Positions 22,331 to 40,139 of a stretch of DNA of 64,000 nt are shown in pieces (the stretch's first letter is position 1; each line of letters begins with the position of its first letter). The notes under the pieces were generated by a model. That model made no database searches. It saw only the letters and a program-made list of their open reading frames with translations, and was not told the DNA's origin. This DNA is from Muricea muricata. Lineage: Eukaryota; Cnidaria; Anthozoa; Malacalcyonacea; Plexauridae. The position numbers and the translations under genes were made by a program. Location: positions 8,003,013-8,067,012 of the forward strand of contig OY979723.1 in the NCBI GenBank assembly GCA_963855995.1, given 5' to 3'.

Positions 22331-22372
22331 ATTAAACATTTACGAACACGTGATCGGAAGCGACGTTTAAAA

Positions 22373-22382
22373 ACTATATAAG
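22373..22382 (+). promoter_or_regulatory. TATA box of GRF zinc-finger gene
   Basis: CTATATAAG lies 50 bases before the ATG at 22,424. If it is a true TATA box, transcription would begin after the ATG at 22,388. This favours the 22,424 start (MMKCLHG) for the next gene. Confidence 0.5.
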
Positions 22383-22423
22383 AGTGCATGATCGATAAAA
22401 ATTTAGTTACATTAATATACTGT

Positions 22424-23008: not shown

Positions 23009-23101
23009 CTTCTTTAATGCTTGTATTAATTACTATACTTTAAATAAATATGTTTTACCTTTTTGTATTCATTCTCGTTTTGGTCTGTCTTTGAGGGGGA
23101 A

Positions 23102-23452
23102 ATGGAAATAATTTTGGACGAGCTTCAAAAAAATAACGTAGATATTGATATGCGAACGTTATCGCATCATGTGAACTATTTACTTGACAAGCATGGAGAC
23201 ATATATCAGTCAATAGTTTCACGCTGTCCTGATCTTGTGACTATTTTTTACGAAATCGACGTAGTCAATTTTGGTCGTGCCATGGCTTATTTAACACTGG
23301 TCTATTTAACGAAAGTTTCTGGAGATGAGGCACGTGTAGCTGTACAGTTAGTTGCTAAACGTTTGAGGAACTTTGATTTTGCTAAGTTCAAGATCGAAGA
23401 AAGTTTTTTTGACAAAATAATGTCTATTTTTCAACGCTTGTTTTCGTCATAA
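23102..23452 (+). CDS. Bcl-2-like protein of Polinton
   Basis: The product is 116 residues from the ATG at 23,102 (the frame is open upstream without an ATG). The segment IDVVNFGRAMAYLTLVYL (about residues 54-71) closely resembles the BH1 motif of Bcl-2 proteins (x-x-NWGR-(I/V)-x-A-F). It is preceded by helices equivalent to alpha 2-4 and followed by a helix and an FFDKIMSIF segment in the BH2 position. The usual BH2 Gly-Gly-Trp is missing and there is no C-terminal membrane anchor. Bcl-2-like genes are reported from adintoviruses and adenoviruses, where they block apoptosis of the infected cell. The same role is inferred here. Short length and weak BH2 keep this below certainty. Confidence 0.62.
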   Translation: MEIILDELQKNNVDIDMRTLSHHVNYLLDKHGDIYQSIVSRCPDLVTIFYEIDVVNFGRAMAYLTLVYLTKVSGDEARVAVQLVAKRLRNFDFAKFKIEESFFDKIMSIFQRLFSS

Positions 23453-23504
23453 AACTTAGAGGTTTGCGAAATAAAATTCAGTACATGTCTTCCTTGTGAG
23501 CCCG

Positions 23505-24149
23505 ATGGATGTGAGATTTAGGACGCCTGCTAATTTTTATATCTGCGGTGCAAGTCAAAGCGGAAAGTCTTTCTTTCTTCGTTCCATGTTACGTAACCTT
23601 GAATATTTATTTTCATCGGTACCCTCTAAGATAATATATTCGTATGGCGTATATCAGAAAGAATTTGCCGAGCTATCAGAAACTGTACCGAACATACAGT
23701 TTGTGGAGGGATTTCCAAACGATTTATATGATATGACAGATGCTCACGATAGCTCAATGGTAATTTTGGACGATTTAATGTCCCAGTGCTCAAACGATCA
23801 ACGCGTGGTTGACCTTTTTACTCGTGGCTCTCATCATCGTGGGATAACGGTTTTATTTCTTACTCAAAACCTATTTCCGCCTGGTAAACTTTCGCGAGCG
23901 CTCAGTTTAAATGCGCATTACATGATGATATTTCGAAATCCGCGTGATTCACTTGGAATTACAACATTGGCTCGTCAAATGTACCCAAAGAATGTCGACT
24001 ATTTGCTTGAATCATATAACGATGCTACGAAAAGACCATACGGCTATCTTTTGCTGGATCTCCATCAATTAACGCCCGCGGATATGAGATTGCGAACAAA
24101 CATTTTGCCCAACGAGAGACATATTGTTTACGTTATGCGAAACGCATAA
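23505..24149 (+). CDS. FtsK/HerA-type (A32-like) DNA-packaging ATPase
   Basis: The product is 214 residues starting at the ATG at 23,505 (MDVRFRTPANFYICGASQSG). Walker A is GASQSGKS (residues 15-22) and Walker B is MVILDD (85-90). VLFLTQNLFPPG follows as the sensor-like strand, and MMIFRNPRDSLG is a recognised conserved block of this family. In Polintons and related dsDNA viruses this enzyme drives genome translocation into the capsid. The frame is intact and of normal size. It lies about 50 bp after the Bcl-2-like gene, on the same strand. Confidence 0.93.
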   Translation: MDVRFRTPANFYICGASQSGKSFFLRSMLRNLEYLFSSVPSKIIYSYGVYQKEFAELSETVPNIQFVEGFPNDLYDMTDAHDSSMVILDDLMSQCSNDQRVVDLFTRGSHHRGITVLFLTQNLFPPGKLSRALSLNAHYMMIFRNPRDSLGITTLARQMYPKNVDYLLESYNDATKRPYGYLLLDLHQLTPADMRLRTNILPNERHIVYVMRNA

Positions 24150-24267
24150 GTGACTTTCTATGTAATGTAATTATTATTATTTAAATCCTTTACGCAACCC
24201 AACAAAATGTAAAAGTTATAACATCCAGAATATAAAAATATAAAAAACCCCATTGCTATGTTTGTTA

Positions 24268-25275
24268 TTATACACTAGTTGTCAAGTAAATATCTGTGCT
24301 TGAGCCTGAGGAGCTCATAGACGTAACCGTAAGGCTCATGTGAACTGTTTCGTTTTGCTCTATTTCATGACTGTTCTGGCGGCAGCGGGTATATAGTTTA
24401 AACTTTACACAGACCATCAGGACCAAAATTGTAGAAATGCTTATCGACAGATATATCAGGAGGTCGTAAGAGCGAGGTTGTGATCTAGCAAGGGAAACAG
24501 TCGGTTTGTTATAAAAGCGTGTAGATGTTGCCAGTGTTGAAGGGATTGCAGGAAGAACGGAGTTGTGGGTTGGTTTGCTGTAGGTCTTGGTAGCGACTGT
24601 TGAGGTTAAGGATGTATAAAGACTTGTAGGTGTTGGCGGGGTTCCAAGTGGTTTTACGGTCGAGAGTCGTGGTGTTGATATTGCTGGAGAACTTCTGGTG
24701 GCAAGTGTAAGCGGGGTACTAAGTACTTTTGCGGTCGAGGATCGTGGAGCAGGTATTGTCGAGAGCCGTGGAATATTTTTTATGGAGGAGTGACTGAGTA
24801 TCGTTAGGATGGTAGCTTTAGGAAAGGAGGATTTTGGAGCAAGGCAGCTTGTAATGATGGATATTGGCGGAGCTTTGGAGGGCGAGGATGGCAGGGTATT
24901 TTGAATAGGGCTAGGACTGGGTTTCAATGAAGTGCTGAGGATCGGACAATCGCTTATAATCGTGACGCCAACAAGGTTTATTCTGCCACATACGTTAGGG
25001 TTATGGCGAAGGTCAACAATCTTTAAATTCGGGTAAATGGTTAATACTGTATTTCCAATTGTGGAAATGTTGTTTTGTCGCAAATCTAAAACTTTCACAT
25101 CACGACGGCCATCCTGCAAAATTGGTACATGACGTAAACCTTGATCAACACAGTCCAAAATGCCCAAGGGTCGGAAGAAAGTACAAGGTCTTTCGTCTCC
25201 ATTGGTTATTATAAGGGTCAGCGAAGAAAATACAATAAAAAAACGTACAAATGCAACCATGATTGGATTTATCAA
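24268..25275 (-). CDS. type I membrane protein: signal peptide, leucine-rich repeat, mucin-like stalk, TM
   Basis: The product is 335 residues. The N-terminus is a signal peptide (FVRFFIVFSSLTLIIT). A small LRR module follows: an N-terminal Cys cap (PCTFFRPLGILDCV), repeats VKVLDLRQNNISTIGN and LKIVDLRHNPNVCG, and a closing Cys (ISDCPI). Residues about 115-265 are Ser/Thr/Pro-rich and would be heavily O-glycosylated. A transmembrane segment (LLIYLSISISTILVLMVCV) sits near 270-290, followed by a 43-residue Ser/Thr-rich tail. The architecture resembles host cell-surface LRR receptors. In a virus-like element it could be a captured host decoy, adhesion or surface protein. It is transcribed opposite to its neighbours and has no core-gene homologue in Polintons that I know of. 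Confidence 0.75.
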   Translation of the reverse strand: MINPIMVAFVRFFIVFSSLTLIITNGDERPCTFFRPLGILDCVDQGLRHVPILQDGRRDVKVLDLRQNNISTIGNTVLTIYPNLKIVDLRHNPNVCGRINLVGVTIISDCPILSTSLKPSPSPIQNTLPSSPSKAPPISIITSCLAPKSSFPKATILTILSHSSIKNIPRLSTIPAPRSSTAKVLSTPLTLATRSSPAISTPRLSTVKPLGTPPTPTSLYTSLTSTVATKTYSKPTHNSVLPAIPSTLATSTRFYNKPTVSLARSQPRSYDLLIYLSISISTILVLMVCVKFKLYTRCRQNSHEIEQNETVHMSLTVTSMSSSGSSTDIYLTTSV

Positions 25276-25403
25276 TGACTATTCACCTGCTTTTGTGTAA
25301 ATTACGTCTGCACATACAGAGAACTATTCCTAAATGTTTTCAAATTGCATAAAGGGGGTGAGGCGTCAGATAAGGCGTTTGTTTACTTTTATCCATTAAC
25401 GAG

Positions 25404-25411
25404 TTATAAAA
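25404..25411 (+). promoter_or_regulatory. TATA box of basic virion-protein gene
   Basis: TTATAAAA lies 35-42 bases before the ATG at 25,446. Spacing suits a TATA box with a very short leader, as in compact viral genomes. Confidence 0.5.
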
Positions 25412-25445
25412 TCATGCTTTTCACGCAATTCAGTTTATTTATCTC

Positions 25446-25784
25446 ATGATGTCAAAGAGGATGAGAGGTAGTTTGCCTTACTTGCAAATACTTGCAAAGT
25501 GTAAACCTAAAGTACGAAAAGTTCTTATAGAACATGGGCCAAGCAACCTTGTATTGAGCATTTGTGAATGTTGTCACAACGTCTTAAAAGGGACAGTTCC
25601 CCTGACGAAGAGGCAGAAACAACATTTGTCACGATACAAGAAACACCTTAGAGACTTGGCAAACAAAAAGGTTTCACGCGTAAAGAAACAACGCTTGTTG
25701 ACTCAGCAGAAAGGTGGGGGAAATTTGTTAGCAGCGCTTTTACCACCTGTTTTAACTGTGTTAACTAACTTGTTAACAGAATGA
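25446..25784 (+). CDS. conserved Polinton basic protein with hydrophobic C-terminus
   Basis: The product is 112 residues. The N-terminal half has paired Cys (ICECCHNVLKG). The middle is strongly basic (LTKRQKQHLSRYKKHLRDL), and the C-terminus is GGGNLLAALLPPVLTVLTNL, an amphipathic or hydrophobic tail. Proteins with this layout recur in animal Polintons and adintoviruses. They are thought to be virion core or membrane-active proteins by analogy with adenovirus pX and pVI, which is an inference. Its stop overlaps the next start (ATGA at 25,781-25,784), so the two are probably expressed from one transcript. Confidence 0.75.
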   Translation: MMSKRMRGSLPYLQILAKCKPKVRKVLIEHGPSNLVLSICECCHNVLKGTVPLTKRQKQHLSRYKKHLRDLANKKVSRVKKQRLLTQQKGGGNLLAALLPPVLTVLTNLLTE

Positions 25785-26524
25785 AAAGTGTTAAAAAAAT
25801 GATTCTTGTACCCGAGGACGTGTTCAACAGATTTGAACAAAAGCAAAAAATGGAGACCTCCCCGATTGTTAGTAACATGATGCAAAAAGATGCCGACATG
25901 TCAAAACTTCTTTATCGTGAAGATCTAAATGATGATGAAAAAAAGAAACTGTATGACGCAAATTTGGAACGTTATCTAGATTTGAAGCATCAGAAAGACA
26001 ATACGACCCCCACATTTCGGATATTACCCAATAGTGAGATAGAAAATAAAGAGCTGGCTTTGCCCGAAGAAAAAGCACAACTTTCAGATTCGGTTATTGT
26101 GGAAAATATTCCTAAAACAATGCGTACAAGAGCCGTTGCACTTTTAAACCGTTTGAAAGCAAGGCCCGATGTTATTTCTTGGGATGAAACGGGTAGGGTC
26201 AGCCTTGATGGTGTGGACATCCCCCACTCTAATATTTCAGATTTGATCAGCGACGCTGTCAGAGGAAGAAAAAAATTTAATCCTGTCGGGTCAAGGCAAT
26301 TTTTTCGAGCACTAAGAAAAATTAATATGCCTCGAGACATAGTACGAAATGAAGACCGATGGAAAGAGGCTCAAATTGACAGTGGATCTGGGGAGGATGT
26401 GCCTGATAGCAGCAGTAGCAGCCCTCGAATTGGCAGTCCATTAAAATATTTTCAAACCTTGGTAAAAAGACATAAAGATACGGAAAAGCAAGAAAAAACT
26501 CCAAAACGCTGGCTTAATTATTAA
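25781..26524 (+). CDS. conserved Polinton protein of unknown function (MKSVKKMILVPED family)
   Basis: The product is 247 residues. The N-terminus MKSVKKMILVPEDVFNRFEQ, the ETSPIVSNMM block, LNDDEKKKLYDANLERYL, and the C-terminal ALLNRLKARPDVISWDETG and SNISDLISDAVRGRKKFNP blocks recur in Polinton-encoded proteins of many invertebrates. It ends in a Ser-rich linker and a basic tail. No enzymatic motif is visible. Position next to the basic protein and facing the protease and capsid cluster suggests a virion structural or assembly role. It overlaps the upstream stop by 4 bp and is followed by AATAAA near 26,560. Confidence 0.78.
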   Translation: MKSVKKMILVPEDVFNRFEQKQKMETSPIVSNMMQKDADMSKLLYREDLNDDEKKKLYDANLERYLDLKHQKDNTTPTFRILPNSEIENKELALPEEKAQLSDSVIVENIPKTMRTRAVALLNRLKARPDVISWDETGRVSLDGVDIPHSNISDLISDAVRGRKKFNPVGSRQFFRALRKINMPRDIVRNEDRWKEAQIDSGSGEDVPDSSSSSPRIGSPLKYFQTLVKRHKDTEKQEKTPKRWLNY

Positions 26525-26680
26525 CATTCTAAATATGTATAGTACTTCTTAACGGCAATAAATCAAATTGAAATTGTAATTTTCCGTCGTCATTTTTATG
26601 TGGGAGGGGTACCCGCTAATACGTAATAATAATAAAAACTGATATATAGTAAAAAATATTTATTCACGACATGCTAAATA

Positions 26681-27211
26681 TTACAAAATGCGTTTTTTAC
26701 TAATCTGGTTATGGTTTACATGCAAGCGATTATCAATTACTTTAAAATGATTTTTGACAAATTGAGACACCATGGCGTCATTTATTAACGTATTATTATT
26801 AAAAACATGCGCAATTTTGTTCAGGCTATGTCCCCGTGACCTTTGATATAAATAAAACAAACAATATTCCCCACAAACAGCTGACCAATCGCTTTGCAGC
26901 TTACGGCTATTAAATCCCCATTCGTTACAATGTTTATTTAAAAAGTTAGTAAACGAAGTCCCGTAAAATTCTGGCGGTTTTCCCAACGAGTCAAAAAAGG
27001 ACCCCTTCTTTAAGGACCCTTTCTGTTCAATTGAGATAAACATCGCGATCCAGTGTTCACCTGGTTTATCGCTCGGGTCTGTATTCGCAACGATCCCACA
27101 CGGGTATTTTTCGATTGTTTGAGGCAGCTTATCACTAGGAAAGACACCACAAAACGTTTTGCTTGTCATGGGGTCCTGTTTCAATGCACGAGTGATCTGA
27201 GTAGTGTTCAT
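26681..27211 (-). CDS. adenovirus-type (C5, adenain-like) cysteine protease
   Basis: The product is 176 residues. Catalytic features are GEHWIAMFI (His53), FFDSLG (Asp74), Gln106 upstream of the nucleophile, and VCGEYC with Cys117 as the nucleophile; order and spacing match adenain and the Polinton PRO gene. In adenoviruses this protease matures capsid and core proteins. The frame is intact. The ATG at 27,211 directly follows the stop of the major capsid gene (27,212-27,214), as in other Polintons where capsid and protease are adjacent. On the minus strand an AATAAA lies just beyond the stop. Confidence 0.93.
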   Translation of the reverse strand: MNTTQITRALKQDPMTSKTFCGVFPSDKLPQTIEKYPCGIVANTDPSDKPGEHWIAMFISIEQKGSLKKGSFFDSLGKPPEFYGTSFTNFLNKHCNEWGFNSRKLQSDWSAVCGEYCLFYLYQRSRGHSLNKIAHVFNNNTLINDAMVSQFVKNHFKVIDNRLHVNHNQISKKRIL

Positions 27212-27487
27212 CTAGCCAGAGTAGTCGTAAACAACGTTTCTTTCGGAATCGATTTGAATTAGGTTCTCAAATTCCCCGTAGCATACAAGACTCACGGCAG
27301 ATCCTGGGGCGGCAGAGAACTTAATGTCAACTGTTAGACTTCCTTTCTGCACGACGTTAAAATGGGGTGACGATCCACACACATATCAGCTGTCAGGTCG
27401 AAGGCATAAATGGAATAACCGTTAGGGAACTCGTCTCGACTTATATCGTTTCCGGTGTTAAAATACATTTTTCCCGTGCCAGAAAAC
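27212..27487 (-). pseudogene. major capsid protein gene, C-terminal fragment
   Basis: This is the 3' end of the major capsid gene, severed from the rest at 35,266-36,313 by insertion of the inner Polinton. Two frames are involved: a first block (GKMYFNTGNDISRDEFPNGY) and, after a frameshift near 27,380, a second block (SLVCYGEFENLIQIDSERN) ending at the TAG at 27,212. Such acidic or aromatic C-termini are typical of the family. The frameshift may be a slip in a TGTGTG run. Confidence 0.85.
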
Positions 27488-27493
27488 AGTGTA

Positions 27494-30400
27494 AGTAGGT
27501 AACCCCCCCCATCCAGCGGCGGAAGTAATTAGTATGCAAGCACATTATTCAGCAAAGGAAGTAATTAGTATGCAGTAGTAGAATAGTCACAGGTATGGTC
27601 CCAGAAGTGACCAGAGCTCTTACCCCTAGAAAGTAGTTCTTAGGTCGGCCGTGTGGACCAGTGCGCGCGCATGTTGACAGAAACCTGTTTAAAACGGGTT
27701 TGGTCCATTGTGTTTGAGATATTACGTCATATCGTTCCACTTTTGCGCCAAAATGGTACAATTGTGTGCTAGCAGTCACGCATCGGGCGCTTGCTTAAAT
27801 ATGTTCAAGTAACGTCGACTACGGAAACTTGTATTCAGCAAGGACATTATTTGGACTTTCTGCATCACCATTCCTATATACAAGGCGTTATTGGAAAGCA
27901 CTTGCATTTTTAGCTATTATTTTAAACTGTTGTTTTAAATATTCCTGCTATTGCACGCTGTCCTTTTCCTGTATACTTTGTTCATTCCGTACATTTTACC
28001 AAACAGTTACATATAGCAAGTTAATATCGTTTACTCCGTCCCGAACGGTTTATATGTTGTTTAGGTCGTGGTATAGAAACGGCTTAAAATGGCCATGATG
28101 CAGTCGGTTAAATCAAAATTGACCCTTAATTGACAATTCCCTACTTTTCTATTCTTTTTGTACCAAGACAATCTATTGATTTATTATGGTTTCCTAGCAC
28201 AATGCTAAAGGAAATAATCCTATAGTATAGGGGAAATACGTTTCATGCACTGGTGTGTACTTTGCCGCCGTTTTTGACACATTTCCCTGTTGACATTGCA
28301 CTGACGTTCTGTCTAACGAGAAGGAATAAGTTTTATTGAAAATTGGACTATACTCATATCATCAAAGTCTATACAGATAATCATAGTTTTCTAGTCAAGG
28401 CAATTGGGATAATTAAGAGAGGATATAATTTCCATCTCATGCAATGTTGTGTATTTTGTCACAAATTTTGACACTGTTGAATTTTTAATTACACTGTGCC
28501 AACGTTGTTTGTATTGAGGGGAAATTGGTCAGACTGTACTATTGGTCGGTGAAAAGGGGGAAATTGGTTTTTATGTAGAGAAAGTTGGTAACTTGATTTA
28601 AACTGTGTCAGACTAATACATCGGGCAACGTAATTCTTTGCCCAAACTTCAAATGGCATGAGGCGGAACTGCTACTTTGTTCAGTCCTACGTATACCGTT
28701 TTGTTGTGTCATTGTATGTACACAATTAAGTGTGTGTTACATCATGCCCTAACTAATTGAAATAATTGAATTTTTATTACACTGCACTAACGTTCTTTGT
28801 AATGAGGGGAACTTATAAAAGTTTAAAGTTCGTAGGGCAGGTTTAAAACAAAATTGACCCTTACTTAACATTCTGCTATACTCATACAATATCATTTCTG
28901 AGTCAAAGGCAATAGAGGCGACTGAGAGGATATAATCCCGATAACCCCATGCAATGTTATTTATTTTGTCACTGAGTTTGACACATTGAATTTTTAATTA
29001 CACCGCACCAACATTTGTAATGAGGGGAAATTAACATTTTTTTATGACACTGCACTATTGCTCGTGAAATGGGGAAATTATAGCTGTATATAGTGAAAGT
29101 TGGTATTTAATTTGAACTGCGTCAAGCAATCCGCTAATTTGCACATCTTACCGTCTGTTTTGTTGTGTGTATATAATATGTCCTAGCAAATCGATGCATA
29201 TTGTTTTATAAAGGTTTAAGGCTAGTAGGGCATATTTAAAAGAAAATTGACCCTAATTTGACATCCTGCTACTCATATCTGATGTCATCGCATTAGTGTA
29301 CTCAGATCGCAGATTTATCGTAGCTTCTTGAGACAATTTAATACGGACAATAGAGGTAATTTCTCATTACAGTAGGCAATGTTTGTGATACTGAACTGCC
29401 ACATGGCAATAAGGACAATCCTGACACATTTCATTCTTTCGCAATGTTCTGCGTAATGAGGGGAAAGTTAATCAGTTTTGTTCAATGTTGGTGCTTTGAA
29501 CTGCTATCAAACTAATAAATAATTTATTACGGGACAGTTTTACTTGTCTCGCATCAAGAGACGCCCGGAACATTTTAAGGGACACACGGGAGTGACGGGA
29601 CTTTCTTACGGGACACATTGCGGGACACCTTTAGGCGTCCCGATGTCCCGTACTAACCAATGGCCTGGCTACTATTACTGGAAATATTTTAACATCTACA
29701 AAATTAAGAGACCCTATTCGGGCCACTTTTACGCGTCTCGCTTTAAAAGGACACGCGGAAACCTCTTACGGGACATAAGGGACTTTTTTACGAGACATAA
29801 GACATTTTTACATGTAGGCATCCCGATGTCCCTCACGTCCCGTCCATCTACATAATAGCATGCTTATCATTACTGGAAATACCTTAACATATAGGGACGT
29901 AAGGGACTTCATTACGGAACAGTTCTACGCGTCCCGCTTCAAAGGACGTCCGGGACATTGTTACGGGACGCTCTTACGGGACACAAGGGACTTTATCACG
30001 GGACATTTTTAGGCGTCCCGCTGTCCCTTGCGTCCCGTTCCAACTAACATGTCATATGAACCCAAAGGAGTTCATTACGAACCCTTTTTACGCAACTTGC
30101 CTCATCAAGGGGCCGGTGAAAACACCTGCGAGATATTTGTGAGCAGTTAGTAACGTAAAGGGAGAGTTTTCGAATTATAGGGGGAAAAGCAACTAAACAA
30201 ACGCTCAAATGTTTTATTTTTAACACATTTATTAGTAATAACTCAATTCATAAGGCGTGTGGAGATATTGTCATCATCATCATCATCCTCATTGCTTTCA
30301 GGAAAGTACTGTCTGTCTTCTAACAGAAGTTCCAAAAGAAATTTCCTTTTTTTAATAGCAGCAGTCAAAGCTTCGTCAGGATCGAAATCATCTTCGTCAA

Positions 30401-30531
30401 CGAATGCATCTTTGGTTTTCATTATTTTCCGATGCACTGGATCCCTTTTCATTTGCGTCATCCATTTCAGGCGATCCAAATAAATATTTCCTAGTTTCTT
30501 TCGAAGGTCTGGTAAAATTTCTGAAAAGGCT
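27494..30531 (+). repeat. left arm of inner element (3.04-kb TIR)
   Basis: The arm is itself repetitive. From about 28,110 to 29,520, degenerate units of roughly 300-400 bp repeat, each with an AAATTGACCCT block, a TTTTAATTACAC block and an ATGAGGGGAAA block. From about 29,540 to 30,040 are many copies of GGGAC/GTCCC words such as TTACGGGACA and GGCGTCCCG. The innermost 290 bp copy the 3' end of the zinc-finger gene. No independent gene is supported; the open frames here are repeat artefacts. One substitution against the right arm was noted near 27,631. Confidence 0.92.
30243..30531 (-). pseudogene. duplicated 3' end of the acidic zinc-finger gene, in the TIR
   Basis: It is identical in coding content to the last part of the gene at 31,728-32,510, including YLDRLKWMTQMKRDP and the poly-Asp DNISTRLMN terminus, but inverted. 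Homology stops at exactly 30,531, in mid-codon sequence, which defines the inner TIR boundary. The fragment lacks the zinc finger and the acidic region and is not expected to be functional. Confidence 0.9.
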
Positions 30532-30644
30532 CAGGTTTGTCCGGCTTATTTCACTTAAAACATTCGAGAATTCAATGACTACGTTAGTCTATTTAGCGAG
30601 TGTGCTTGTGAACAGTTGGTCTAAAAAACGCAAAGAAAATTATA

Positions 30645-31100
30645 ATGGCACACCTGCTTAAACAAATGTATGTAGATGAAATTGACTTTGATGCCCTGAC
30701 TGTTGAAAAACTCATTGATCTTGTGTTCACGGAAATGGTCTATCGTAAGATTCAACAATTGGAAGAAGAAACATTGGCCAAACGTGATCAAACTGATGGT
30801 AATCAATGGACAAGGTTCAGAGAATGCTTTAAGATGCTTGACAACGAAGAGCGGTGGATAAGTTATGCCGAACGAGCTCTTGAACTGTTGAACCATGATG
30901 TTATGTGGCGAGGAGTCGTGGAAGCGTGCAAGATTTTAAAGTATCCAGAACCATCAGCAATCCACAGAGGTTACTTTGAAGCGCTGTTTGATATGTCATG
31001 TTTCGTTTGGTTCCAGATATATTCTGAATCTGAAAGAACTGCATTTATTAACAATCTAATTGACTATGTCTTATGTGTGTGCAAATTAAAATGTAACTAG
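30645..31100 (+). CDS. VEA-x-KILKY family protein of inner element
   Basis: The product is 151 residues from the ATG at 30,645 (MAHLLKQMYVDEIDFD). Motifs are LVFTEMVYRKIQQLEEE, then a region without the Cys/Trp patch of its relative (NQWTRFRECFKML), then the core VMWRGVVEACKILKYPEP, then a helical C-terminus ending NLIDYVLCVCKLKCN. The last block aligns with NLIDYLICLYQLKYN of the outer TIR gene. The family is otherwise unrecognised. Being one of only three full genes kept in the element, it is likely to be useful for the element's spread or regulation. No promoter motif was identified. Confidence 0.78.
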   Translation: MAHLLKQMYVDEIDFDALTVEKLIDLVFTEMVYRKIQQLEEETLAKRDQTDGNQWTRFRECFKMLDNEERWISYAERALELLNHDVMWRGVVEACKILKYPEPSAIHRGYFEALFDMSCFVWFQIYSESERTAFINNLIDYVLCVCKLKCN

Positions 31101-31193
31101 ACAGTGTATGTACCAAAGAAATAAGTTATAGTTTTAAAAAGTACTGTTTTGCTGTTTTTCTTCATTTCATTCAGTTTGCTTGTAAGAGGTAAC

Positions 31194-31442
31194 ATGGGCA
31201 CTTGTCATAGTAAGAGTGATAAAATCAAAAGAGACAAAAATCATAACAGACAGAAAATGTTTAAATTTGGTGTAAGTTTTGGCCGTAACGATTTAAATTT
31301 GGAAGGTCACCTGCAGATGGGATATAACAGTAAGACAATTAAAAACTATGGCCCCATTGACAAACAGTTAAACCCGCCAGGAAGTACAATTTCAGCAGTA
31401 ACTGAGCCCAACGATCAGGCAACAGAGACATCAGAAAACTAA
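31194..31442 (+). CDS. small putatively N-myristoylated protein (MGTCHSK)
   Basis: The product is 82 residues from the ATG at 31,194. The N-terminus MGTCHSKS fits the N-myristoylation pattern (Gly2, Ser6, Lys7), and Cys4 could be palmitoylated. Thus membrane association is likely. The central block HNRQKMFKFGVSFGRNDLNL and the next block EGHLQMGYNSKTIKNY are nearly identical to the outer Polinton protein at 40,714-40,971. The C-terminus is variable and polar. Function unknown; a matrix-like or host-membrane role is a guess. The gene is followed after about 50 bp by an integrase-like ATG, the same order as in the outer element. Confidence 0.75.
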   Translation: MGTCHSKSDKIKRDKNHNRQKMFKFGVSFGRNDLNLEGHLQMGYNSKTIKNYGPIDKQLNPPGSTISAVTEPNDQATETSEN

Positions 31443-31493
31443 TTTTTTTTTATGACGCGGATTCACGCTTTCTTTGTTTCATTTAAAAAGAAG

Positions 31494-31565
31494 ACATGGC
31501 CCAAGCAACAGTTGACAAGTGCTTGGAAAGTGTTTATTATGATCCAAAAGGTCGAGGGAGCTGAC
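31494..31565 (+). pseudogene. 5' stub of a Polinton integrase gene
   Basis: The ATG at 31,494 opens a 23-codon frame (MAQATVDKCLESVYYDPKGR) that ends in TGA. Its LESVYYDPK matches the LSSVYYNTK start of the outer integrase at 40,677. Both follow the stop of the myristoylated-protein gene by 36-51 bases. The match is short, but conserved gene order supports it. It indicates that the inner element arose from a fuller Polinton by internal deletion. Confidence 0.5.
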
Positions 31566-31727
31566 AGGTTATATCGTGATGCATTTTTAGGCATTGCGAC
31601 GTCCCGTACTAACCAATACCATGGCTACTATTGCCGGAAATACTTTGACATTTTATAAGCATGTGAGGGTTTTGTCGCGGGACACTTTTTATGTATGTAC
31701 TATAAACGATAAAACGCAGTTTGTAAC

Positions 31728-32510
31728 ATGCCACGGAGGCGTAGGGATTGTCCTATTTGCAGTAAGAAGAATCTCGCCAAATTATCAAACCATTTAGCAG
31801 ATATCCATCGACTCTCAGGAGAAGAAAGACAACATTATCTTTCTAAAGCCAAATCGCTTAGTGATCAAAGAGAATCTGAAGAAATGTTGAATGGAAAAAG
31901 AGTGCGGAGTGAATCGAATGATGAAATGTCGACAGCATCAAGTAGTGACGAAAGGACTTCGAAAGAAACGTTGAGTGAAAAAAGAATGCGAAATGAATCC
32001 GATGACGAAACATCGACAGCATCTGATGAAGATATCTTCAGTTCATCAGGCGAGGGAGACGCTGAAAGTTCCGAAGAAATAAACGACTCTGACGAAAGCG
32101 AAGAAGAGAACCCATGGGAAGTATTAATACACGAAGCAGCGATGGAACTTCGTACAAAGCACAATGAAATTGTACAAAGTTTTCAAAATGGTGGTTTTAG
32201 TGAAATTGACGCAAAGAAACAAGCCTTTTCAGAAATTTTACCAGACCTTCGAAAGAAACTAGGAAATATTTATTTGGATCGCCTGAAATGGATGACGCAA
32301 ATGAAAAGGGATCCAGTGCATCGGAAAATAATGAAAACCAAAGATGCATTCGTTGACGAAGATGATTTCGATCCTGACGAAGCTTTGACTGCTGCTATTA
32401 AAAAAAGGAAATTTCTTTTGGAACTTCTGTTAGAAGACAGACAGTACTTTCCTGAAAGCAATGAGGATGATGATGATGATGACAATATCTCCACACGCCT
32501 TATGAATTGA
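31728..32510 (+). CDS. zinc-finger protein with acidic region
   Basis: The product is 260 residues. The N-terminus is MPRRRRDCPICSKKNL with a C-x2-C...H-x4-H finger completed by AKLSNHLADIH. Residues about 45-130 are Ser/Glu/Asp-rich (SSSGEGDAESSEEINDS), followed by a helical domain (NPWEVLIHEAAMELRTK) and a basic-hydrophobic region (RLKWMTQMKRDPVHRK). It ends in a poly-Asp patch. A related but broken gene is at 42,396 in the outer element. The layout suggests a nuclear DNA-binding regulator or terminal-repeat-binding protein; that role is inferred. Its 3' end extends into the right TIR arm, so the final 96 codons or so are present twice. AATAAA occurs just after the stop. Confidence 0.78.
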   Translation: MPRRRRDCPICSKKNLAKLSNHLADIHRLSGEERQHYLSKAKSLSDQRESEEMLNGKRVRSESNDEMSTASSSDERTSKETLSEKRMRNESDDETSTASDEDIFSSSGEGDAESSEEINDSDESEEENPWEVLIHEAAMELRTKHNEIVQSFQNGGFSEIDAKKQAFSEILPDLRKKLGNIYLDRLKWMTQMKRDPVHRKIMKTKDAFVDEDDFDPDEALTAAIKKRKFLLELLLEDRQYFPESNEDDDDDDNISTRLMN

Positions 32511-35259
32511 GTTATTACTAATAAATGTGTTAAAAATAAAACATTTGAGCGTTTGTTTAGTTGCTTTTCCCCCTATAATTCGAAAACTCTCCCTTTACGT
32601 TACTAACTGCTCACAAATATCTCGCAGGTGTTTTCACCGGCCCCTTGATGAGGCAAGTTGCGTAAAAAGGGTTCGTAATGAACTCCTTTGGGTTCATATG
32701 ACATGTTAGTTGGAACGGGACGCAAGGGACAGCGGGACGCCTAAAAATGTCCCGTGATAAAGTCCCTTGTGTCCCGTAAGAGCGTCCCGTAACAATGTCC
32801 CGGACGTCCTTTGAAGCGGGACGCGTAGAACTGTTCCGTAATGAAGTCCCTTACGTCCCTATATGTTAAGGTATTTCCAGTAATGATAAGCATGCTATTA
32901 TGTAGATGGACGGGACGTGAGGGACATCGGGATGCCTACATGTAAAAATGTCTTATGTCTCGTAAAAAAGTCCCTTATGTCCCGTAAGAGGTTTCCGCGT
33001 GTCCTTTTAAAGCGAGACGCGTAAAAGTGGCCCGAATAGGGTCTCTTAATTTTGTAGATGTTAAAATATTTCCAGTAATAGTAGCCAGGCCATTGGTTAG
33101 TACGGGACATCGGGACGCCTAAAGGTGTCCCGCAATGTGTCCCGTAAGAAAGTCCCGTCACTCCCGTGTGTCCCTTAAAATGTTCCGGGCGTCTCTTGAT
33201 GCGAGACAAGTAAAACTGTCCCGTAATAAATTATTTATTAGTTTGATAGCAGTTCAAAGCACCAACATTGAACAAAACTGATTAACTTTCCCCTCATTAC
33301 GCAGAACATTGCGAAAGAATGAAATGTGTCAGGATTGTCCTTATTGCCATGTGGCAGTTCAGTATCACAAACATTGCCTACTGTAATGAGAAATTACCTC
33401 TATTGTCCGTATTAAATTGTCTCAAGAAGCTACGATAAATCTGCGATCTGAGTACACTAATGCGATGACATCAGATATGAGTAGCAGGATGTCAAATTAG
33501 GGTCAATTTTCTTTTAAATATGCCCTACTAGCCTTAAACCTTTATAAAACAATATGCATCGATTTGCTAGGACATATTATATACACACAACAAAACAGAC
33601 GGTAAGATGTGCAAATTAGCGGATTGCTTGACGCAGTTCAAATTAAATACCAACTTTCACTATATACAGCTATAATTTCCCCATTTCACGAGCAATAGTG
33701 CAGTGTCATAAAAAAATGTTAATTTCCCCTCATTACAAATGTTGGTGCGGTGTAATTAAAAATTCAATGTGTCAAACTCAGTGACAAAATAAATAACATT
33801 GCATGGGGTTATCGGGATTATATCCTCTCAGTCGCCTCTATTGCCTTTGACTCAGAAATGATATTGTATGAGTATAGCAGAATGTTAAGTAAGGGTCAAT
33901 TTTGTTTTAAACCTGCCCTACGAACTTTAAACTTTTATAAGTTCCCCTCATTACAAAGAACGTTAGTGCAGTGTAATAAAAATTCAATTATTTCAATTAG
34001 TTAGGGCATGATGTAACACACACTTAATTGTGTACATACAATGACACAACAAAACGGTATACGTAGGACTGAACAAAGTAGCAGTTCCGCCTCATGCCAT
34101 TTGAAGTTTGGGCAAAGAATTACGTTGCCCGATGTATTAGTCTGACACAGTTTAAATCAAGTTACCAACTTTCTCTACATAAAAACCAATTTCCCCCTTT
34201 TCACCGACCAATAGTACAGTCTGACCAATTTCCCCTCAATACAAACAACGTTGGCACAGTGTAATTAAAAATTCAACAGTGTCAAAATTTGTGACAAAAT
34301 ACACAACATTGCATGAGATGGAAATTATATCCTCTCTTAATTATCCCAATTGCCTTGACTAGAAAACTATGATTATCTGTATAGACTTTGATGATATGAG
34401 TATAGTCCAATTTTCAATAAAACTTATTCCTTCTCGTTAGACAGAACGTCAGTGCAATGTCAACAGGGAAATGTGTCAAAAACGGCGGCAAAGTACACAC
34501 CAGTGCATGAAACGTATTTCCCCTATACTATAGGATTATTTCCTTTAGCATTGTGCTAGGAAACCATAATAAATCAATAGATTGTCTTGGTACAAAAAGA
34601 ATAGAAAAGTAGGGAATTGTCAATTAAGGGTCAATTTTGATTTAACCGACTGCATCATGGCCATTTTAAGCCGTTTCTATACCACGACCTAAACAACATA
34701 TAAACCGTTCGGGACGGAGTAAACGATATTAACTTGCTATATGTAACTGTTTGGTAAAATGTACGGAATGAACAAAGTATACAGGAAAAGGACAGCGTGC
34801 AATAGCAGGAATATTTAAAACAACAGTTTAAAATAATAGCTAAAAATGCAAGTGCTTTCCAATAACGCCTTGTATATAGGAATGGTGATGCAGAAAGTCC
34901 AAATAATGTCCTTGCTGAATACAAGTTTCCGTAGTCGACGTTACTTGAACATATTTAAGCAAGCGCCCGATGCGTGACTGCTAGCACACAATTGTACCAT
35001 TTTGGCGCAAAAGTGGAACGATATGACGTAATATCTCAAACACAATGGACCAAACCCGTTTTAAACAGGTTTCTGTCAACATGCGCGCGCACTGGTCCAC
35101 ACGGCCGACCTAAGAACTAATTTCTAGGGGTAAGAGCTCTGGTCACTTCTGGGACCATACCTGTGACTATTCTACTACTGCATACTAATTACTTCCTTTG
35201 CTGAATAATGTGCTTGCATACTAATTACTTCCGCCGCTGGATGGGGGGGGTTACCTACT
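32222..35259 (-). repeat. right arm of inner element (3.04-kb TIR)
   Basis: Inverted copy of 27,494-30,531, collinear over its whole length. It begins inside the zinc-finger gene and ends TTACCTACT next to the TSD AGTGTA. Open frames in this arm mirror those of the left arm exactly, showing very high identity and hence recent formation or continuing homogenisation. Confidence 0.92.
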
Positions 35260-35265
35260 AGTGTA

Positions 35266-36313
35266 CAAAAAGCTTCGATAAACCTGGGGTTGGCACCGAA
35301 GGATAGCTGCAACGGCTTAAATGGCATATCTTCCCCATTTACAGATATCCCAACCGATGACACGTCAAAATGTTGAAAGTTGTACGGATTTTTCTCGTAT
35401 GCACCGTTAAACGCAGTACTTTCTACCAGGCAGATGACAAGCGATTTCGGTACAAGTCCGTTGAAAACGTTATCTTTTCTGAGAGAGGGATTTCCTGCTG
35501 GAATTATAAAACTTTTGCACTCGACTCGACGAATGGGATAATTGCAGGACCCTTTTTCAAAGCAACTTCGTGAGCCAGCGAAATGCTAGGGCTTACTTTT
35601 ACTTTTCGTAATTTGAGATAAGCATCGACCAGCTTTACTTTGTGATCGGCGTCGTCCACAGAGCTCATCAAACAAAATTCGTTACCATTACGATTCAAAA
35701 TGACTTTTAAATCGATAAAACTTAGTAAAAGACGTTCGGTCATAAATATGTCACAAAATACTGGCCCAGCCATTTCAATAACTCCACTTTCTTTACTAAA
35801 TTCGTATCTTGTTTTAAGACCCAAGTTAGCATTGTTCACTGCCAACGTGGGATCGGCAACATCCATTTTTCCAGCTGTGTCTTTGTAGAACATCGAAGCT
35901 GTTAGTTGAGATTGCTTTGCCGCTGGACCGTAATTTAGAAGGGTTTCGAGGTAAGCACGATATGCGTAAGTTCCCATAGCTTGAGTTACTTGCTTTTCTT
36001 TTAGAAACACGTCGACTTGTTTGAACAGACTGTGCAGAAAATTGTTCACAATACCAACCTTTTCGTCTACGTCTAGATCTGCTCCATTCGCTTTTGTTAC
36101 CTTTGCCCTCACCACAAGAATCGTTTTAGACAAATCGATATAGTCTTCAGTGCCCGGAGACAAGAATGTGATTGGACCACCGTCCCATACACTGGACACA
36201 GGCTGATGATCCATCCAGTACCCTTTCTCCAAACTGACTTGTGTTGGGGGCACAGAAAATAGATCTAGTTCGCTTTTGCTGCATTCCTGCGATTTGGAGT
36301 GTACAAAATTCAT
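35266..36313 (-). pseudogene. major capsid protein gene (double jelly-roll), N-terminal and middle part
   Basis: The frame opens at the ATG at 36,313 (MNFVHSKSQECSKSELDLF) and stays open for 269 codons. It carries Polinton major-capsid blocks: PPTQVSLEKGYWMDHQPVSS, VGIVNNFLHSLFKQVDVFL, YRAYLETLLNYGPAAKQSQL. A stop follows a frameshift near 35,505-35,515, and coding similarity resumes in another frame (PLQLSFGANPRFIEAF) until the inner element cuts it at 35,265. The distal end is at 27,212-27,487. In intact relatives this protein builds the icosahedral shell. With two frameshifts and a 7.8-kb insertion, no capsid protein can be made. The start lies 2 bp after the stop of the upstream gene. Confidence 0.88.
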
Positions 36314-36315
36314 GT

Positions 36316-36771
36316 TTAACCAAATATGTCTTGAGGAGATGTTTTCCGTTTCTTGGCCTGCTTGTTTCTGCCAGCAGGCTGTGATGCCTTTCTCTTTTTA
36401 CCTGTGTTCCCAACCTTTTTCGCTCCACGTTTTCCATTTCCTGTTTGGGCATAAGTGTTTGCTCGTTGTATAGCTTTCTCTTTCGCCACGTCAACCGCCT
36501 CCCCAATGCGTGCTTTTGCGGCTTCCTTCGCATTTTTACCGGCTAATACATCGCCCACAAAATTTGCCCCACTATTCAATGCTATGTTGCCAAGGGCGTT
36601 TGCTCCCCTTTTGATCATCGGCATAACCGCTCTTGCAACGCTACGAAATAGGCCACCAAGACCAAATCCCACCCCATGTCCAATTTGCCATGGACTGCCT
36701 CTGAACACAGACATACCATGACCTTGTTGTTGATTGAGATCGTAGTTTACGTACGGATTGTTCTGAGTCAT
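36316..36771 (-). CDS. Polinton basic virion-type protein (Gly-rich, pX/pVII-like)
   Basis: The product is 151 residues. The N-terminus is MTQNNPYVNYDLNQQQGHG, then a conserved block (FRGSPWQIGHGVGFGLG, LFRSVARAVMPMIKRG) and GANFVGDVLAGKNAKEAA. The C-terminus is rich in Lys/Arg with nuclear-localisation-like runs (GKKRKA, NKQAKKRKT). Such proteins lie next to the capsid gene in most animal Polintons. They are regarded as adenovirus core-like or minor virion proteins, by analogy rather than proof. It is packed between minor and major capsid genes with 2-bp gaps on both sides, implying shared transcription or downstream re-initiation. Confidence 0.8.
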   Translation of the reverse strand: MTQNNPYVNYDLNQQQGHGMSVFRGSPWQIGHGVGFGLGGLFRSVARAVMPMIKRGANALGNIALNSGANFVGDVLAGKNAKEAAKARIGEAVDVAKEKAIQRANTYAQTGNGKRGAKKVGNTGKKRKASQPAGRNKQAKKRKTSPQDIFG

Positions 36772-36773
36772 TT

Positions 36774-37532
36774 TTACAGAAAGTAAGGTGAACTTTTTTG
36801 CTTAAAGTGTAGTGTAATGATCACCTTCCCGCGCTCAAATGGCACTGGATCTCCCGTGTCATTCCTTAAAAGAACCTCCACGTTCTCGAATGATTTGGTT
36901 TGGACAGGTACATACTGGATGTTGGTAAACGTTTTAGCAATGACGTCACCAAACTTTCCCTCAGCAGGAATGCTTTTCAGTAATTGCGCACTTGTATCTC
37001 CGACGACCTGCGGCTCAACAATATCGCAATACACATAAATCGTCGATACAACCGTTAAGTCAGTTACGTAAGGACTAACAGTCGTTTTTGTGATGATTTT
37101 TAAATCAGTATCCCCAAACCCTAAGATAATAGACATTCGACCGATTAAGCCGAGTTGGTACCCCTTTTTTAACTGAACTGTCACTTTTCCGTTGAGAGTG
37201 TTATACGTTAACTTAATGTTATCGTTAACATTCCTGGCTAATGCTTTATTAACAGCTTTAACAAGATCTTGCATTGATTGGTAGTAACCATAATCGATAA
37301 TGGCCTGTTGAAACACGCCACTTGTGCCCATGTAAAAAATATGCGTGTCGGACCCGTCCTGTAACGTGTACCATGTATTTGGATAGGACACAGAGTACAG
37401 GCCAACTTCCCAGTTTCCCTCCAAATCAATAGTTTGTGGTAATTTTACACGATAACTGGTCGTTTTGTTATCGGGAAAAACTCCCAGAGATGAATTACTG
37501 GGGAGCGTAAGGTAAAAATGTGTTCCGCTCAT
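36774..37532 (-). CDS. minor capsid protein (single jelly-roll, penton-like)
   Basis: The product is 252 residues, intact. Signature blocks are FYLTLPSNSSLGVFPDNKTT near the N-terminus and IDLEGNWEVGLYSVSYPNTW, common to Polinton minor capsid proteins. IYVYCDIVEPQVVGDTSAQ and the C-terminal NDTGDPVPFERGKVIITLHF complete the family pattern. By analogy with adenovirus penton and homologues in virophages it would occupy the fivefold vertices. It is co-directional with integrase upstream and with the basic protein and major capsid gene downstream. Confidence 0.9.
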   Translation of the reverse strand: MSGTHFYLTLPSNSSLGVFPDNKTTSYRVKLPQTIDLEGNWEVGLYSVSYPNTWYTLQDGSDTHIFYMGTSGVFQQAIIDYGYYQSMQDLVKAVNKALARNVNDNIKLTYNTLNGKVTVQLKKGYQLGLIGRMSIILGFGDTDLKIITKTTVSPYVTDLTVVSTIYVYCDIVEPQVVGDTSAQLLKSIPAEGKFGDVIAKTFTNIQYVPVQTKSFENVEVLLRNDTGDPVPFERGKVIITLHFKQKSSPYFL

Positions 37533-37581
37533 GTTGAAAGTAATAGTACAATTGAAAAACGCACACAGTACACATTAGTTT

Positions 37582-38106
37582 TTAAACCTTATGTATTTTA
37601 GAAGCAGATACCCAGGAATTAAATTTGTTTGGATAGCCTGACCATTTTACTAAATATTGTACATTTCCTCCCCTGCCACGCTTTTTCAGGATCTTTTCTA
37701 CTTCGTAAACGTCATCCTGCTTGATTACTTTTTGCAATTCCTTGTCGAAAAACGTCCCCTTTAACTCTTCGTTGTCGTAATCTTTAAGTTTATACACTGG
37801 AGGATCGCGAGGCACTTGCTTACTAATGGTAAAAATTTCTTTAGAGAAATTTGGCAAGTACCCTTTTTCAAACTTGCGTTTTATCTTACTAATTCTTACT
37901 TGATCACCGATCTTAAACTTATACTTTACATTTTTGGGAGAACTATGATCATACAGAGTATGCCAAATTTTCTTTTCGTTTTTTGTAGTAACATCAGCTG
38001 GCTTAATTTTAATACTATGGTGAACGCTAAAATTATAAGAATATACTAAATCAGGCAGTATGTCAATGTATCTCATCGTTTTGTTAGCTGTAAAATATCG
38101 CCACAT
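37582..38106 (-). pseudogene. Polinton integrase, C-terminal part with chromodomain
   Basis: This is the 3' half of the integrase gene. It contains the end of the catalytic-core region (ILPDLVYSYNFSVHHSIKI), an SH3-like DNA-binding stretch (FKIGDQVRISKIKRKFEKG) and a C-terminal chromodomain (YEVEKILKKRGRGGNVQYLV, WSGYPNKFNSWV). Chromodomains occur in Polinton integrases and may direct insertion to modified histones. The gene is split from its 5' half (40,140-40,677) by a 2-kb AACGTT-repeat element, so no full enzyme is made. The ATG at 38,106 is internal, not a true start. Confidence 0.9.
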
Positions 38107-38115
38107 TTTTGTTTT

Positions 38116-40134
38116 TCCCAGCTAGCACAATCACGTTGAGGCAACGTTGTATCAACGTTCGCCGAACGTTTATACAACGTCGTGCTCAACGTTGTGTCAA
38201 CGTTTTTTTGTGAACTCGTAGGAACGTTGTGACAACGTTGGGGCTAACGTTAGATGACGACGTTATTACAACGTTCAAGCAACGTTTAGCCGACGTTCAC
38301 ACAACCTTAAACCGACTTTCAAAATATCTACGTTAGAATACGACGTAATTACAACGTTCAGACAACGTTCAGCCGACGTTCACACAACCTTAGACCAACG
38401 TTCAAAATACGACGTAATTACAACGTTGAGACAACGTTCAGCCGACGTTCACACGACGTTAGACCAACGTTCAAAATACGACGTAATTACAACGTTGAGA
38501 CAACGTTGAGACAACGTTGAGACAACGTTCAGCCGACGTTCACACGACCTTAGACCAACGTTCAAAATGCGATGTATAATTATACAACGTTCAGCTGACG
38601 CGTCGAATATAATTCAAACAACAGATAATGAGATCACTGTTCTCATAGTTATATGTTGCTGGAATTGCATTCAACCCGACTGAAATGCGACGTATATAAA
38701 GACATTAAGGCAATGAGGGAAATGTGGAATGTTACCGCTCATTCTGTTTTATTAATATATTCGACACAGTCCTGCGCGGAGGATAAATTAAAGAGACCTT
38801 ATAAAATCACTGAAACAAAGTCGTCAATTTTGAATCTTTTAATGTTTTTACAGAGCATTTTGTATGGGATGTAAATTTGACAGTAAAACTATCTATATTG
38901 GGTCTTTATGATAGTCTTAAATATCTCGTGATCAATATAGGATCTTGCTCCCGCATCATAAACTATATGGAAATACAGCTTGCTCTTCATATATGTTCCT
39001 AAAAGACAAAAATTACGACCATATATTATTAGACATCCTTCTTATCGATACTGTCTTAGCATCTTGGGGACTTTATCACTCCATAAAGACACTATAAACG
39101 GTTATGAATGCGGGCATATTAATCAATATAAGTCGGGCTTTAAATTCAGCAGGGAACCAGTCCACCTAATATCATATTTAAAGATTTGATTACCTTGTCG
39201 TCCACGGAGTAATAATAATGTATACTGCTTTGATCAACGTACACTCAACAATGAAATAACCAATCATTCGACCAACGCTATCGATGCTCTAAAATATGCA
39301 ATAAATTAAGTTGCGCGTGAACGGTGAGAAATATATATCACTTATATGTTATTAAATAAGTTACCTTTTCAGCAATTCAACATAATATATAACTGTGACT
39401 AACATAAATCTTAAGAACACAATGTCTACTTACATTTGAGCTGTGAAAAATACTTTTGTAGAGAAAAATATACTGATGTGCAAACGGTTGACGTTTTGAG
39501 AGAAGACTTTGATTGTTAATTTGTATTTTGCGCGCTTGCTTGTCGCTAACATATATGGTAAGAGTTGCCTTATATGTCTTAATACAATTATCTCCAGCAA
39601 ACGTTTGGTAAAAATCAACTTAGCGAACGTTAATCTCAACGTTCAACCAACGTTGAAACAACGTCACTTATACAACGTAAAATTGAACTTAGCAAACGTT
39701 GATCTCAACGTTCAACCAACGTTTATCCAACGTTGCTATATAACCTAAAAATATCACATTTATCATACGTCAATCTCAACGTTCAACCAACGTTGATACA
39801 ACGTTAGCATACAACGTAAAAATATCACATTTATCAAACGTCAATCTCAACGTTCAACCAACGTTGATACAACGTTAGCATACAACGTAAAAATATCCCA
39901 TTTATCAAACGTCAATCTCAACGTTCAACCAACGTTGACACAACGTTACTATACAACGTAAAAATGACACCTTGGCGAACGTTAACATTTAACGTTCAAC
40001 CAACGTTGATACAACGTCTGGGGCTTTTAAGTAAGAAAGACAACGTGGTGGGAACGTTGTGTTAACGTTAGGTCACGACTAACGTAAATACGACGTTCAG
40101 CCAACGTTGGGATAACGTTGTGTGCTAGTTGGGT
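38116..40134. mobile_element. AACGTT-rich inverted-terminal element, non-coding, about 2.0 kb
   Basis: The element interrupts the integrase gene. Its ends are inverted: CCCAGCTAGCACA on the left and the complement of TGTGCTAGTTGGG on the right. Both flanks are satellite-like arrays of units of about 68-70 bp, each with several AACGTT or ACGTTG palindromes. The left array is about 38,130-38,600 with CAGCCGACGTTCACAC, the right about 39,610-40,120 with ATCTCAACGTTCAACCAACG. The middle (38,600-39,600) is AT-rich and non-coding. I could not establish the TSD; TT on both sides is possible. No transposase, so a non-autonomous DNA transposon. Confidence 0.8.
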
Positions 40135-40139
40135 TAGCG

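What the first reader, a model, noticed from the sequence alone, without database searches (positions are those of the whole stretch)
27494..35259. A 7.8-kb satellite-like Polinton: two 3.04-kb inverted arms around three accessory genes
The ends (AGTAGGTAACCCCC), the 6-bp TSD AGTGTA and the termini shared with the surrounding Polinton show that this inserted as a Polinton. It lacks capsid, ATPase, protease, polymerase and a full integrase. The arms are collinear to the base over 3,038 bp. It kept three open accessory genes, unlike usual non-autonomous deletion products. This resembles a satellite or defective-interfering replicon that borrows the replication, integration and perhaps packaging machinery of a full element.
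Basis: partly seen in the sequence, partly recalled or inferred. Interest (0 to 1): 0.92.

Follow-up and report, generated by a model that had tools for sequence, protein, structure and literature searches.

The report
Palindromic satellite of animal Polinton transposons
A 7.8-kb virus-like DNA element with two near-identical mirror-image arms and no recognisable enzyme or capsid genes sits in at least four places in one animal genome, and its tips match those of a full-size Polinton there, so it probably spreads by borrowing Polinton machinery.

Summary
In detail: 27,494-35,259 has 3,038-bp inverted arms differing at 1 base, a 6-bp duplication AGTGTA, and no capsid, ATPase, protease, polymerase or full integrase. 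It lies in the capsid gene of a broken Polinton (20,730-43,922). In the same 453-Mb genome I examined 14 related elements (this one included); 8 have perfect, mutually different 6-bp duplications, and 4 share this palindrome junction. A less reduced form keeps a contiguous Polinton segment (end of GRF, HPSQ, AD, MG, first 22 integrase codons), so the family is an internal-deletion derivative; eight other Polinton proteins gave no match in 11 copies. Genes mostly stay open, with signs of moderate purifying selection. The first 82 bp match (81/82) the tip of an 18.3-kb Polinton with open integrase and ATPase, while the DNA just inside matches the tip of another Polinton type: the element looks re-capped. 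A second palindromic family, read in part at one locus, carries the terminal repeat of the Polinton type surrounding the window's element (outermost ~24 bp unread). Both carry a zinc-finger gene with a GGGAC array about 200 bp beyond. Best reading: trans-mobilised satellite Polintons. Helper dependence, packaging and interference are inferred.

The parts
27488..27493 (.). left target-site duplication AGTGTA
35260..35265 (.). right target-site duplication AGTGTA
27494..30531 (+). left arm, 3,038 bp
32222..35259 (-). right arm, inverted copy of the left with 1 substitution
27494..27575 (+). 82-bp cap, 81 of 82 identical to the right tip of the P-type Polinton at C4:11782443-11800732
35178..35259 (-). 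same 82-bp cap at the other end
27577..27700 (+). former Q-type Polinton terminus (AGTAGAATAG...), homologous to the end of the Polinton at C1:67053878-67069260
29531..30036 (+). GGGAC/GTCCC array, left arm copy (22 of the arm's 24 words)
32717..33222 (-). GGGAC/GTCCC array, right arm copy, begins about 210 bp after the zinc-finger gene
30243..30531 (-). 3' part of the zinc-finger gene repeated in the left arm
30645..31100 (+). AD gene, 151 aa, predicted all-helical, function unknown
31194..31442 (+). MG gene, 82 aa, starts MGTCHSK (myristoylation-like motif, recalled)
31496..31564 (+). integrase remnant: first 22 codons, then a stop
31561..31651 (+). 91-nt block 75% identical to arm 29605-29695, upstream of the zinc-finger gene
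31728..32510 (+). ZF gene, 260 aa: C2H2-like finger (by eye), acidic linker, helical C-terminal part
20730..43922 (.). surrounding O-type Polinton, duplication CTTGCA on both sides
35266..36313 (-). 5' piece of the surrounding Polinton's major capsid gene, cut by the insertion (also broken elsewhere)
27215..27493 (-). 3' piece of the same capsid gene

Best explanation
It is one copy of a multi-copy family of non-autonomous, satellite-like Polintons. Origin: a Polinton lost everything between integrase codon 22 and a zinc-finger gene near the other end (shown by breakpoints). The product kept ends and accessory genes and no recognisable machinery (shown). Its ends are capped by 82 bp of the terminus of another Polinton type (shown by homology; order of events inferred). 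In the palindromic form one end region, including the 3' part of the zinc-finger gene, was copied onto the other end, probably when a replicating strand folded back on its terminal repeats (junction shown, mechanism inferred). It moves because a Polinton in the same cell supplies protein-primed polymerase and integrase that act on the shared tips (inferred from shared tips and 6-bp duplications). The zinc-finger protein probably binds the GGGAC array beside its gene and helps the element in cis, in replication, partition or control (inferred).
For: Copies: arm search gave 65 matches and core search 51. Of 14 elements examined, 8 have perfect and mutually different 6-bp duplications: AGTGTA, CACTCC, AATGCC, GTCGTA, ATTGAA, ATCATT, GACTTT, CATACA. 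Same palindrome junction in 4. Arms within a copy differ by 1/3038, 1/3022 and 6/2991 in 3 of these 4, less than between palindromic copies (10-71). Eight Polinton proteins (mCP, p150, MCP, PRO, p241, p109, ATPase, PolB piece) gave no match at E <= 0.001 in 11 copies, three of them not held whole; the integrase match stops at codon 21-22 in all 9 copies that have one. Cap 81/82 identical to the tip of an 18.3-kb element with perfect duplication GTCACA, which has open integrase (C4:11789561) and ATPase (C4:11795068). Position 84 is the best of 300 offsets for the Q-type terminus (score 15; shuffle maximum 4.5). Synonymous excess in four pairs, Fisher p 0.0001, 0.006, 0.04 and 0.065. GGGAC array: 24 words against 3.2 in shuffles, 131-263 bp beyond the ZF match in 12 of 12 loci tested and at 195 bp in the second family.
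Against: No helper, DNA intermediate, particle or transposition was observed. PolB and capsid of the cap-matching C4 element were not tested (PolB search did not complete). The other full-size element with these tips and a perfect duplication (C1:25752493-25773014) has no listed ATPase or integrase match (lists capped). One of four palindromic copies (L011) has arms that differ more from each other (26/2890) than from this copy's (16-18). 6 of 14 elements lack a demonstrated perfect duplication. Selection is moderate (dN/dS 0.2-0.8 between satellite copies), one pair is not significant (p 0.065), the pairs are not independent, and constraint could be partly inherited. The GGGAC array could be a repeat hitchhiking with ZF.
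Confidence: 0.76

Rival explanations
1. An ordinary non-autonomous DNA transposon: cut-down Polinton copies moved in trans whose genes are passive passengers, with no satellite-like life of its own.
For: Internal deletion and shared tips are what such derivatives show; some copies have broken or deleted genes (AD in L014, L019, L022; MG broken in L019, L022 and partly deleted in L012, L013). The synonymous excess is weak in one of four pairs.
Against: AD is open in 8 of the 11 examined elements that hold at least 60% of it, MG in 8 of 10; ZF has no stop in the 13 listed full-length loci at 94-100% identity; synonymous excess in three of four pairs at p < 0.05; ZF plus array retained in two families.
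Confidence: 0.17
2. Assembly artefact or a dead one-off: the palindrome is a misassembled hairpin or a single broken copy.
For: Near-perfect 3-kb inverted repeats are prone to assembly error; reads were not available.
Against: Three other loci show the same junction with different flanks and duplications and 0.5-2.2% arm divergence from this copy; a second palindromic family exists.
Confidence: 0.02
3. A segment of a multipartite Polinton-like virus: satellite and helper are co-dependent genome parts, the satellite supplying the ZF function that its helper lacks.
For: A full-length ZF match was found in satellite-type elements but not in the stretches read of five Polintons (L024/25, L026/27, L028/29, L035, L036/37).
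Against: Those Polintons were read only in part; the surrounding Polinton has its own short ZF gene.
Confidence: 0.05

Closest known systems
Polintons/Mavericks
   Same: 6-bp duplications, terminal inverted repeats beginning AGT, accessory genes homologous to those of Polintons in the same genome
   Different: about half the size or less, no match to polymerase, capsid, ATPase or protease, integrase cut to 22 codons; 3-kb arms against 46-1,447 bp in intact vertebrate Mavericks (PMC8097293, passages)
Non-autonomous DNA transposons with autonomous partners
   Same: deletion derivative that keeps cis-acting ends and spreads in several copies
   Different: keeps mostly open genes with signs of constraint; tips from a type other than the gene donor; long palindromes
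Transpovirons (7-kb episomes of Mimiviridae, carried by virophages)
   Same: about 7 kb with terminal inverted repeats, a conserved zinc-finger gene and a non-coding repeat region (PMC7031253, passages)
   Different: no helicase match; integrated with duplications; animal genome; repeats of 380-520 nt there against 3 kb here; sequence relation not tested
Adenovirus defective genomes with inverted terminal duplications (recalled, not read)
   Same: one end copied onto the other in a protein-primed linear genome
   Different: here the product is inherited and multi-copy in a genome

Membership tests
Polinton/Maverick | 6-bp target-site duplication | tested here: met
   AGTGTA; 8 of 14 elements perfect
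Polinton/Maverick | terminal inverted repeats with AGT...ACT ends | tested here: met
Polinton/Maverick | protein-primed DNA polymerase B | tested here: not met
   no tblastn match with one 618-aa PolB piece
Polinton/Maverick | retroviral-type integrase | tested here: not met
   22 codons only
Polinton/Maverick | capsid, ATPase, protease genes | tested here: not met
   no match at E <= 0.001
Non-autonomous DNA transposon | shares cis-acting ends with a full-size element in the same genome | tested here: met
   81 of 82 bp
Non-autonomous DNA transposon | mobilised in trans | not testable with these tools
   inferred from copies and duplications
Satellite virus or satellite DNA | needs a helper for replication | not testable with these tools
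   no replication gene recognised
Satellite virus or satellite DNA | packaged in its own or the helper's particle | not testable with these tools
   no capsid match; particles not examined
Defective-interfering genome | internal-deletion derivative of a complete element | tested here: met
   GRF codon 121 to integrase codon 22 kept in order in the less reduced form
Defective-interfering genome | interferes with the helper | not testable with these tools
   no experiment
Transpoviron | core helicase gene | tested here: not met
   no Pfam helicase match in its three genes

The most novel reading that the evidence does not exclude
Animal Polintons carry their own hyperparasites: palindromic satellite replicons, apparently formed more than once, that exchange their tips to match whichever Polinton is active, that encode a zinc-finger protein with its own GGGAC binding array as a satellite-specific maintenance, replication or helper-competition system, and that may be packaged in the helper's capsids.
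Probability: 0.28. Interest if true: 0.92.

Novelty: new variant of a known kind. Interest (0 to 1): 0.8.

Why it matters
Polintons are thought to be viruses, but particles and dependence relations are hard to observe. Satellites with exchanged tips would show which sequences a helper's polymerase and integrase must recognise (82 bp or fewer), give a natural record of recent helper activity, and extend the helper-satellite ecology known from giant viruses and virophages to animal genomes. The long palindromes record how protein-primed linear genomes may copy one end onto the other.

Tried and rejected
Considered and rejected: deletion product of the surrounding Polinton itself (AD and MG only 37% and 58% identical to its own; different tips). 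Assembly artefact (three further loci with the same junction). Chance repeat. I first took L015 and L018, inverted repeats with other inner junctions, as separate origins of the palindrome; they can as well be Form A copies with a later internal deletion, so I do not count them.
Full report
Observation. The inner element 27494-35259 has two inverted arms of 3,038 bp that differ at one position, around a 1,690-bp core. AGTGTA stands on both sides. It sits inside the major capsid gene of a surrounding Polinton (20730-43922, duplication CTTGCA), whose capsid pieces lie at 35266-36313 and 27215-27493 on the minus strand. The surrounding Polinton's own terminal repeats are 1006/1068 identical, so it is older than the inner insertion if repeats are equal at insertion.

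Genes. Three open genes: AD (151 aa), MG (82 aa, starting MGTCHSK) and ZF (260 aa, which ends 289 bp inside the right arm). Each has a diverged counterpart in the surrounding Polinton (AD 37%, MG 58% identical; ZF over about its first 55 residues). Relatives in a 5.8-billion-protein collection are numerous: ZF 183, AD 150 and MG 314 proteins at E <= 0.001, with AD and MG clusters of over 100 members. Between the AD and MG lists ten contig lengths coincide against 0.16 at shifted lengths.

A multi-copy family. The window lies in a 453-Mb, 74-contig genome. The arm gave 65 matches and the core 51 (several matches per element, and only 40 candidates scored in each). I looked at 14 elements (the window's and 13 in L009-L022). 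Eight have perfect and different 6-bp duplications (W AGTGTA, L009 CACTCC, L010 GTCGTA, L011 AATGCC, L012 ATTGAA, L013 ATCATT, L016/17 GACTTT, L019 CATACA); L020 has 5 of 6 (CGCATA/CGCGTA); L015 has unlike flanks (AATAAC/GGTGAA); in four (L014, L018, L021, L022) one or both tips were not found in the stretch read. L012 is followed by a second tip with the same ATTGAA (L023), probably a tandem product. L032, L034 and further partial matches were not counted.

Two forms. Form A, the palindrome of the window, has the same junction in four elements (W, L009, L010, L011). Form B (L012, L013, L014, L016/17; L020 has its genes but another left end) has about 1.5-kb terminal repeats and, beside the core, about 1.7 kb that Form A lacks. 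Form B carries a fourth gene, HPSQ (121-123 aa). Tblastn with proteins of a Polinton of this genome (L024/L025) shows that Form B and L020 hold, in the Polinton's own order, GRF codons 121-194, HPSQ, AD, MG (only its start in L012 and L013) and integrase codons 1-22. mCP, p150, MCP, protease, p241, p109, ATPase and a 618-aa PolB piece gave no match at E <= 0.001 in the 11 copies tested, of which L010, L014 and L016 were not held whole. The integrase match stops at codon 21-22 in all 9 copies that have one. So the family most likely goes back to one internal deletion. Form A would arise if the ZF-side end replaced the HPSQ-side end. L015 and L018 are inverted repeats with other inner junctions; a later deletion in Form A would explain them too.

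Arms within an element. Substitutions between the two arms of one copy: W 1/3038, L009 1/3022, L010 6/2991, L011 26/2890. Between palindromic copies 10-71: W-L009 14-16, W-L010 64-67, W-L011 16-18. Three of four fit equalisation of arms at replication; L011 does not.

Genes. Judged against the window's frame, AD has no stop or frameshift in 8 of the 11 examined elements that hold at least 60% of it (broken in L014, L019, L022) and MG in 8 of 10 (broken in L019, L022); MG is partly deleted in L012 and L013. The 13 listed full-length ZF matches at 94-100% identity have no stop; the last residues of ZF vary between copies. Over AD, MG and ZF the window's copy differs at synonymous and non-synonymous sites by 15/284 and 24/1195 from L016 (p 0.006), 19/283 and 24/1195 from L014 (p 0.0001), 11/287 and 21/1191 from L010 (p 0.04), 15/284 and 35/1195 from L020 (p 0.065) (four pairs picked by hand among those holding all three genes, not independent). 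L009 and L011 are too close to judge. dN/dS is 0.10-0.17 for AD against Polintons and 0.2-0.8 between satellites with enough change.

Exchanged tips. The Polinton at C1:67053878-67069260 (duplication GGCGAC on both sides; ATPase match open; integrase match with one stop) begins AGTAGAATACCCACAG. Blast aligns the satellite with it from position 121 inward. A direct alignment of its first 45 bases over 300 offsets puts its terminus at satellite position 84 (window 27577), score 15 against a shuffle maximum of 4.5. The 82 bp outside this are the tip of another, P-type element: C4:11782443-11800732 (18.3 kb, duplication GTCACA) and C1:25752493-25773014 (20.5 kb, duplication CAGTAC) carry it at both ends, the former 81 of 82 identical at its right end. 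In L010 the cap is about 0.94 kb on both sides. The C4 element has an open integrase and ATPase; its PolB and capsid were not tested. The C1 element has no ATPase or integrase match in the capped lists. So the satellite's interior descends from one Polinton type and its tips from another. I infer that tip exchange let it use a different helper.

A second family. The ZF search lists at least 12 pairs of back-to-back ZF genes and one convergent pair, 66-73% identical to the window's and less than 1 kb apart. I read part of one, C3:13957100-13967500 without its middle: the arms differ by 1 in 2,999 and 0 in 1,049 aligned bases, and the outermost 1.03 kb read is 94% identical to the terminal repeat of the Polinton that surrounds the window's element, starting at base 25 of that repeat. 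The other pairs were not read.

ZF and the array. The arm holds 24 GGGAC/GTCCC words, 22 of them in 29531-30036; shuffles average 3.2 with a maximum of 13. In 12 of 12 ZF-bearing loci tested 13-26 such words lie within 1.5 kb beyond the ZF match, the first at 131-263 bp; in the second family 15 words, the nearest at 195 bp; beyond the surrounding Polinton's short ZF gene none. I read this as a gene-plus-target cassette; binding is not shown.

Possible helpers are plentiful. The ATPase search gave 151 matches, nine of them (the query's own locus included) identical to the query and open; the integrase search gave 113, of which 22 (query included) are at least 96% identical and open. Such near-identity implies recent activity, though PolB was not searched genome-wide.

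Comparison. Intact vertebrate Mavericks measure 12.7-24.6 kb with repeats of 46-1,447 bp (PMC8097293, passages); this is 7.8 kb with 3,038. Transpovirons are 7-kb elements with terminal repeats and a conserved zinc-finger gene (PMC7031253, passages); the likeness is in way of life, and no sequence relation was tested. Inverted terminal duplications in adenovirus defective genomes are recalled. It fails the gene content that defines a Polinton, so it is filed as a non-autonomous, satellite-like variant.

Limits. No reads, no expression, no particles. Organism unnamed. Counts are lower bounds.

Noticed in passing
window 20730-43922: The surrounding Polinton has matches to integrase, capsid, protease, ATPase and other proteins of a Polinton of this genome but none to a 618-aa PolB piece: it may itself be a capsid-bearing element without polymerase.
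   Followed up: partly
window 38116-40134: The integrase gene of the surrounding Polinton is split by about 2 kb without long open frames.
   Followed up: no
window 21006-21476 and 43140-43610: The AD-type gene lies whole in both terminal repeats of the surrounding Polinton.
   Followed up: partly
window 19126-19339: A third, lone O-type terminus (AGTAGATTACCCC...) with no partner noticed in the window.
   Followed up: no
window 24268-25260: The surrounding Polinton carries a 330-aa open frame with leucine-rich-repeat matches below Pfam's cut-off and a signal-like N-terminus by eye.
   Followed up: no
window 160-2457 and 10257-12386: Retrotransposon piece (endonuclease and reverse transcriptase) and a 709-aa Mutator-like transposase.
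   Followed up: no
L044-L047 (C3:13957100-13967500): Second palindromic family with O-type terminal repeat; 12 further ZF pairs elsewhere were not read.
   Followed up: partly
C2:31589152-31609265 (L021): Looks like a hybrid: satellite sequence at one end, P-type tip at the other, ATPase match with one stop in between.
   Followed up: no
L024 268-5685: Long open frames that look by eye like an LTR retrotransposon with an envelope-like 544-aa frame, beside a Polinton (not searched).
   Followed up: no
L036 81-581: The Q-type Polinton is inserted in a PolB gene of another Polinton, as the window's element is in a capsid gene. Of 13 satellite flanks tested only one (L016) had a Polinton protein match, a weak one.
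   Followed up: partly
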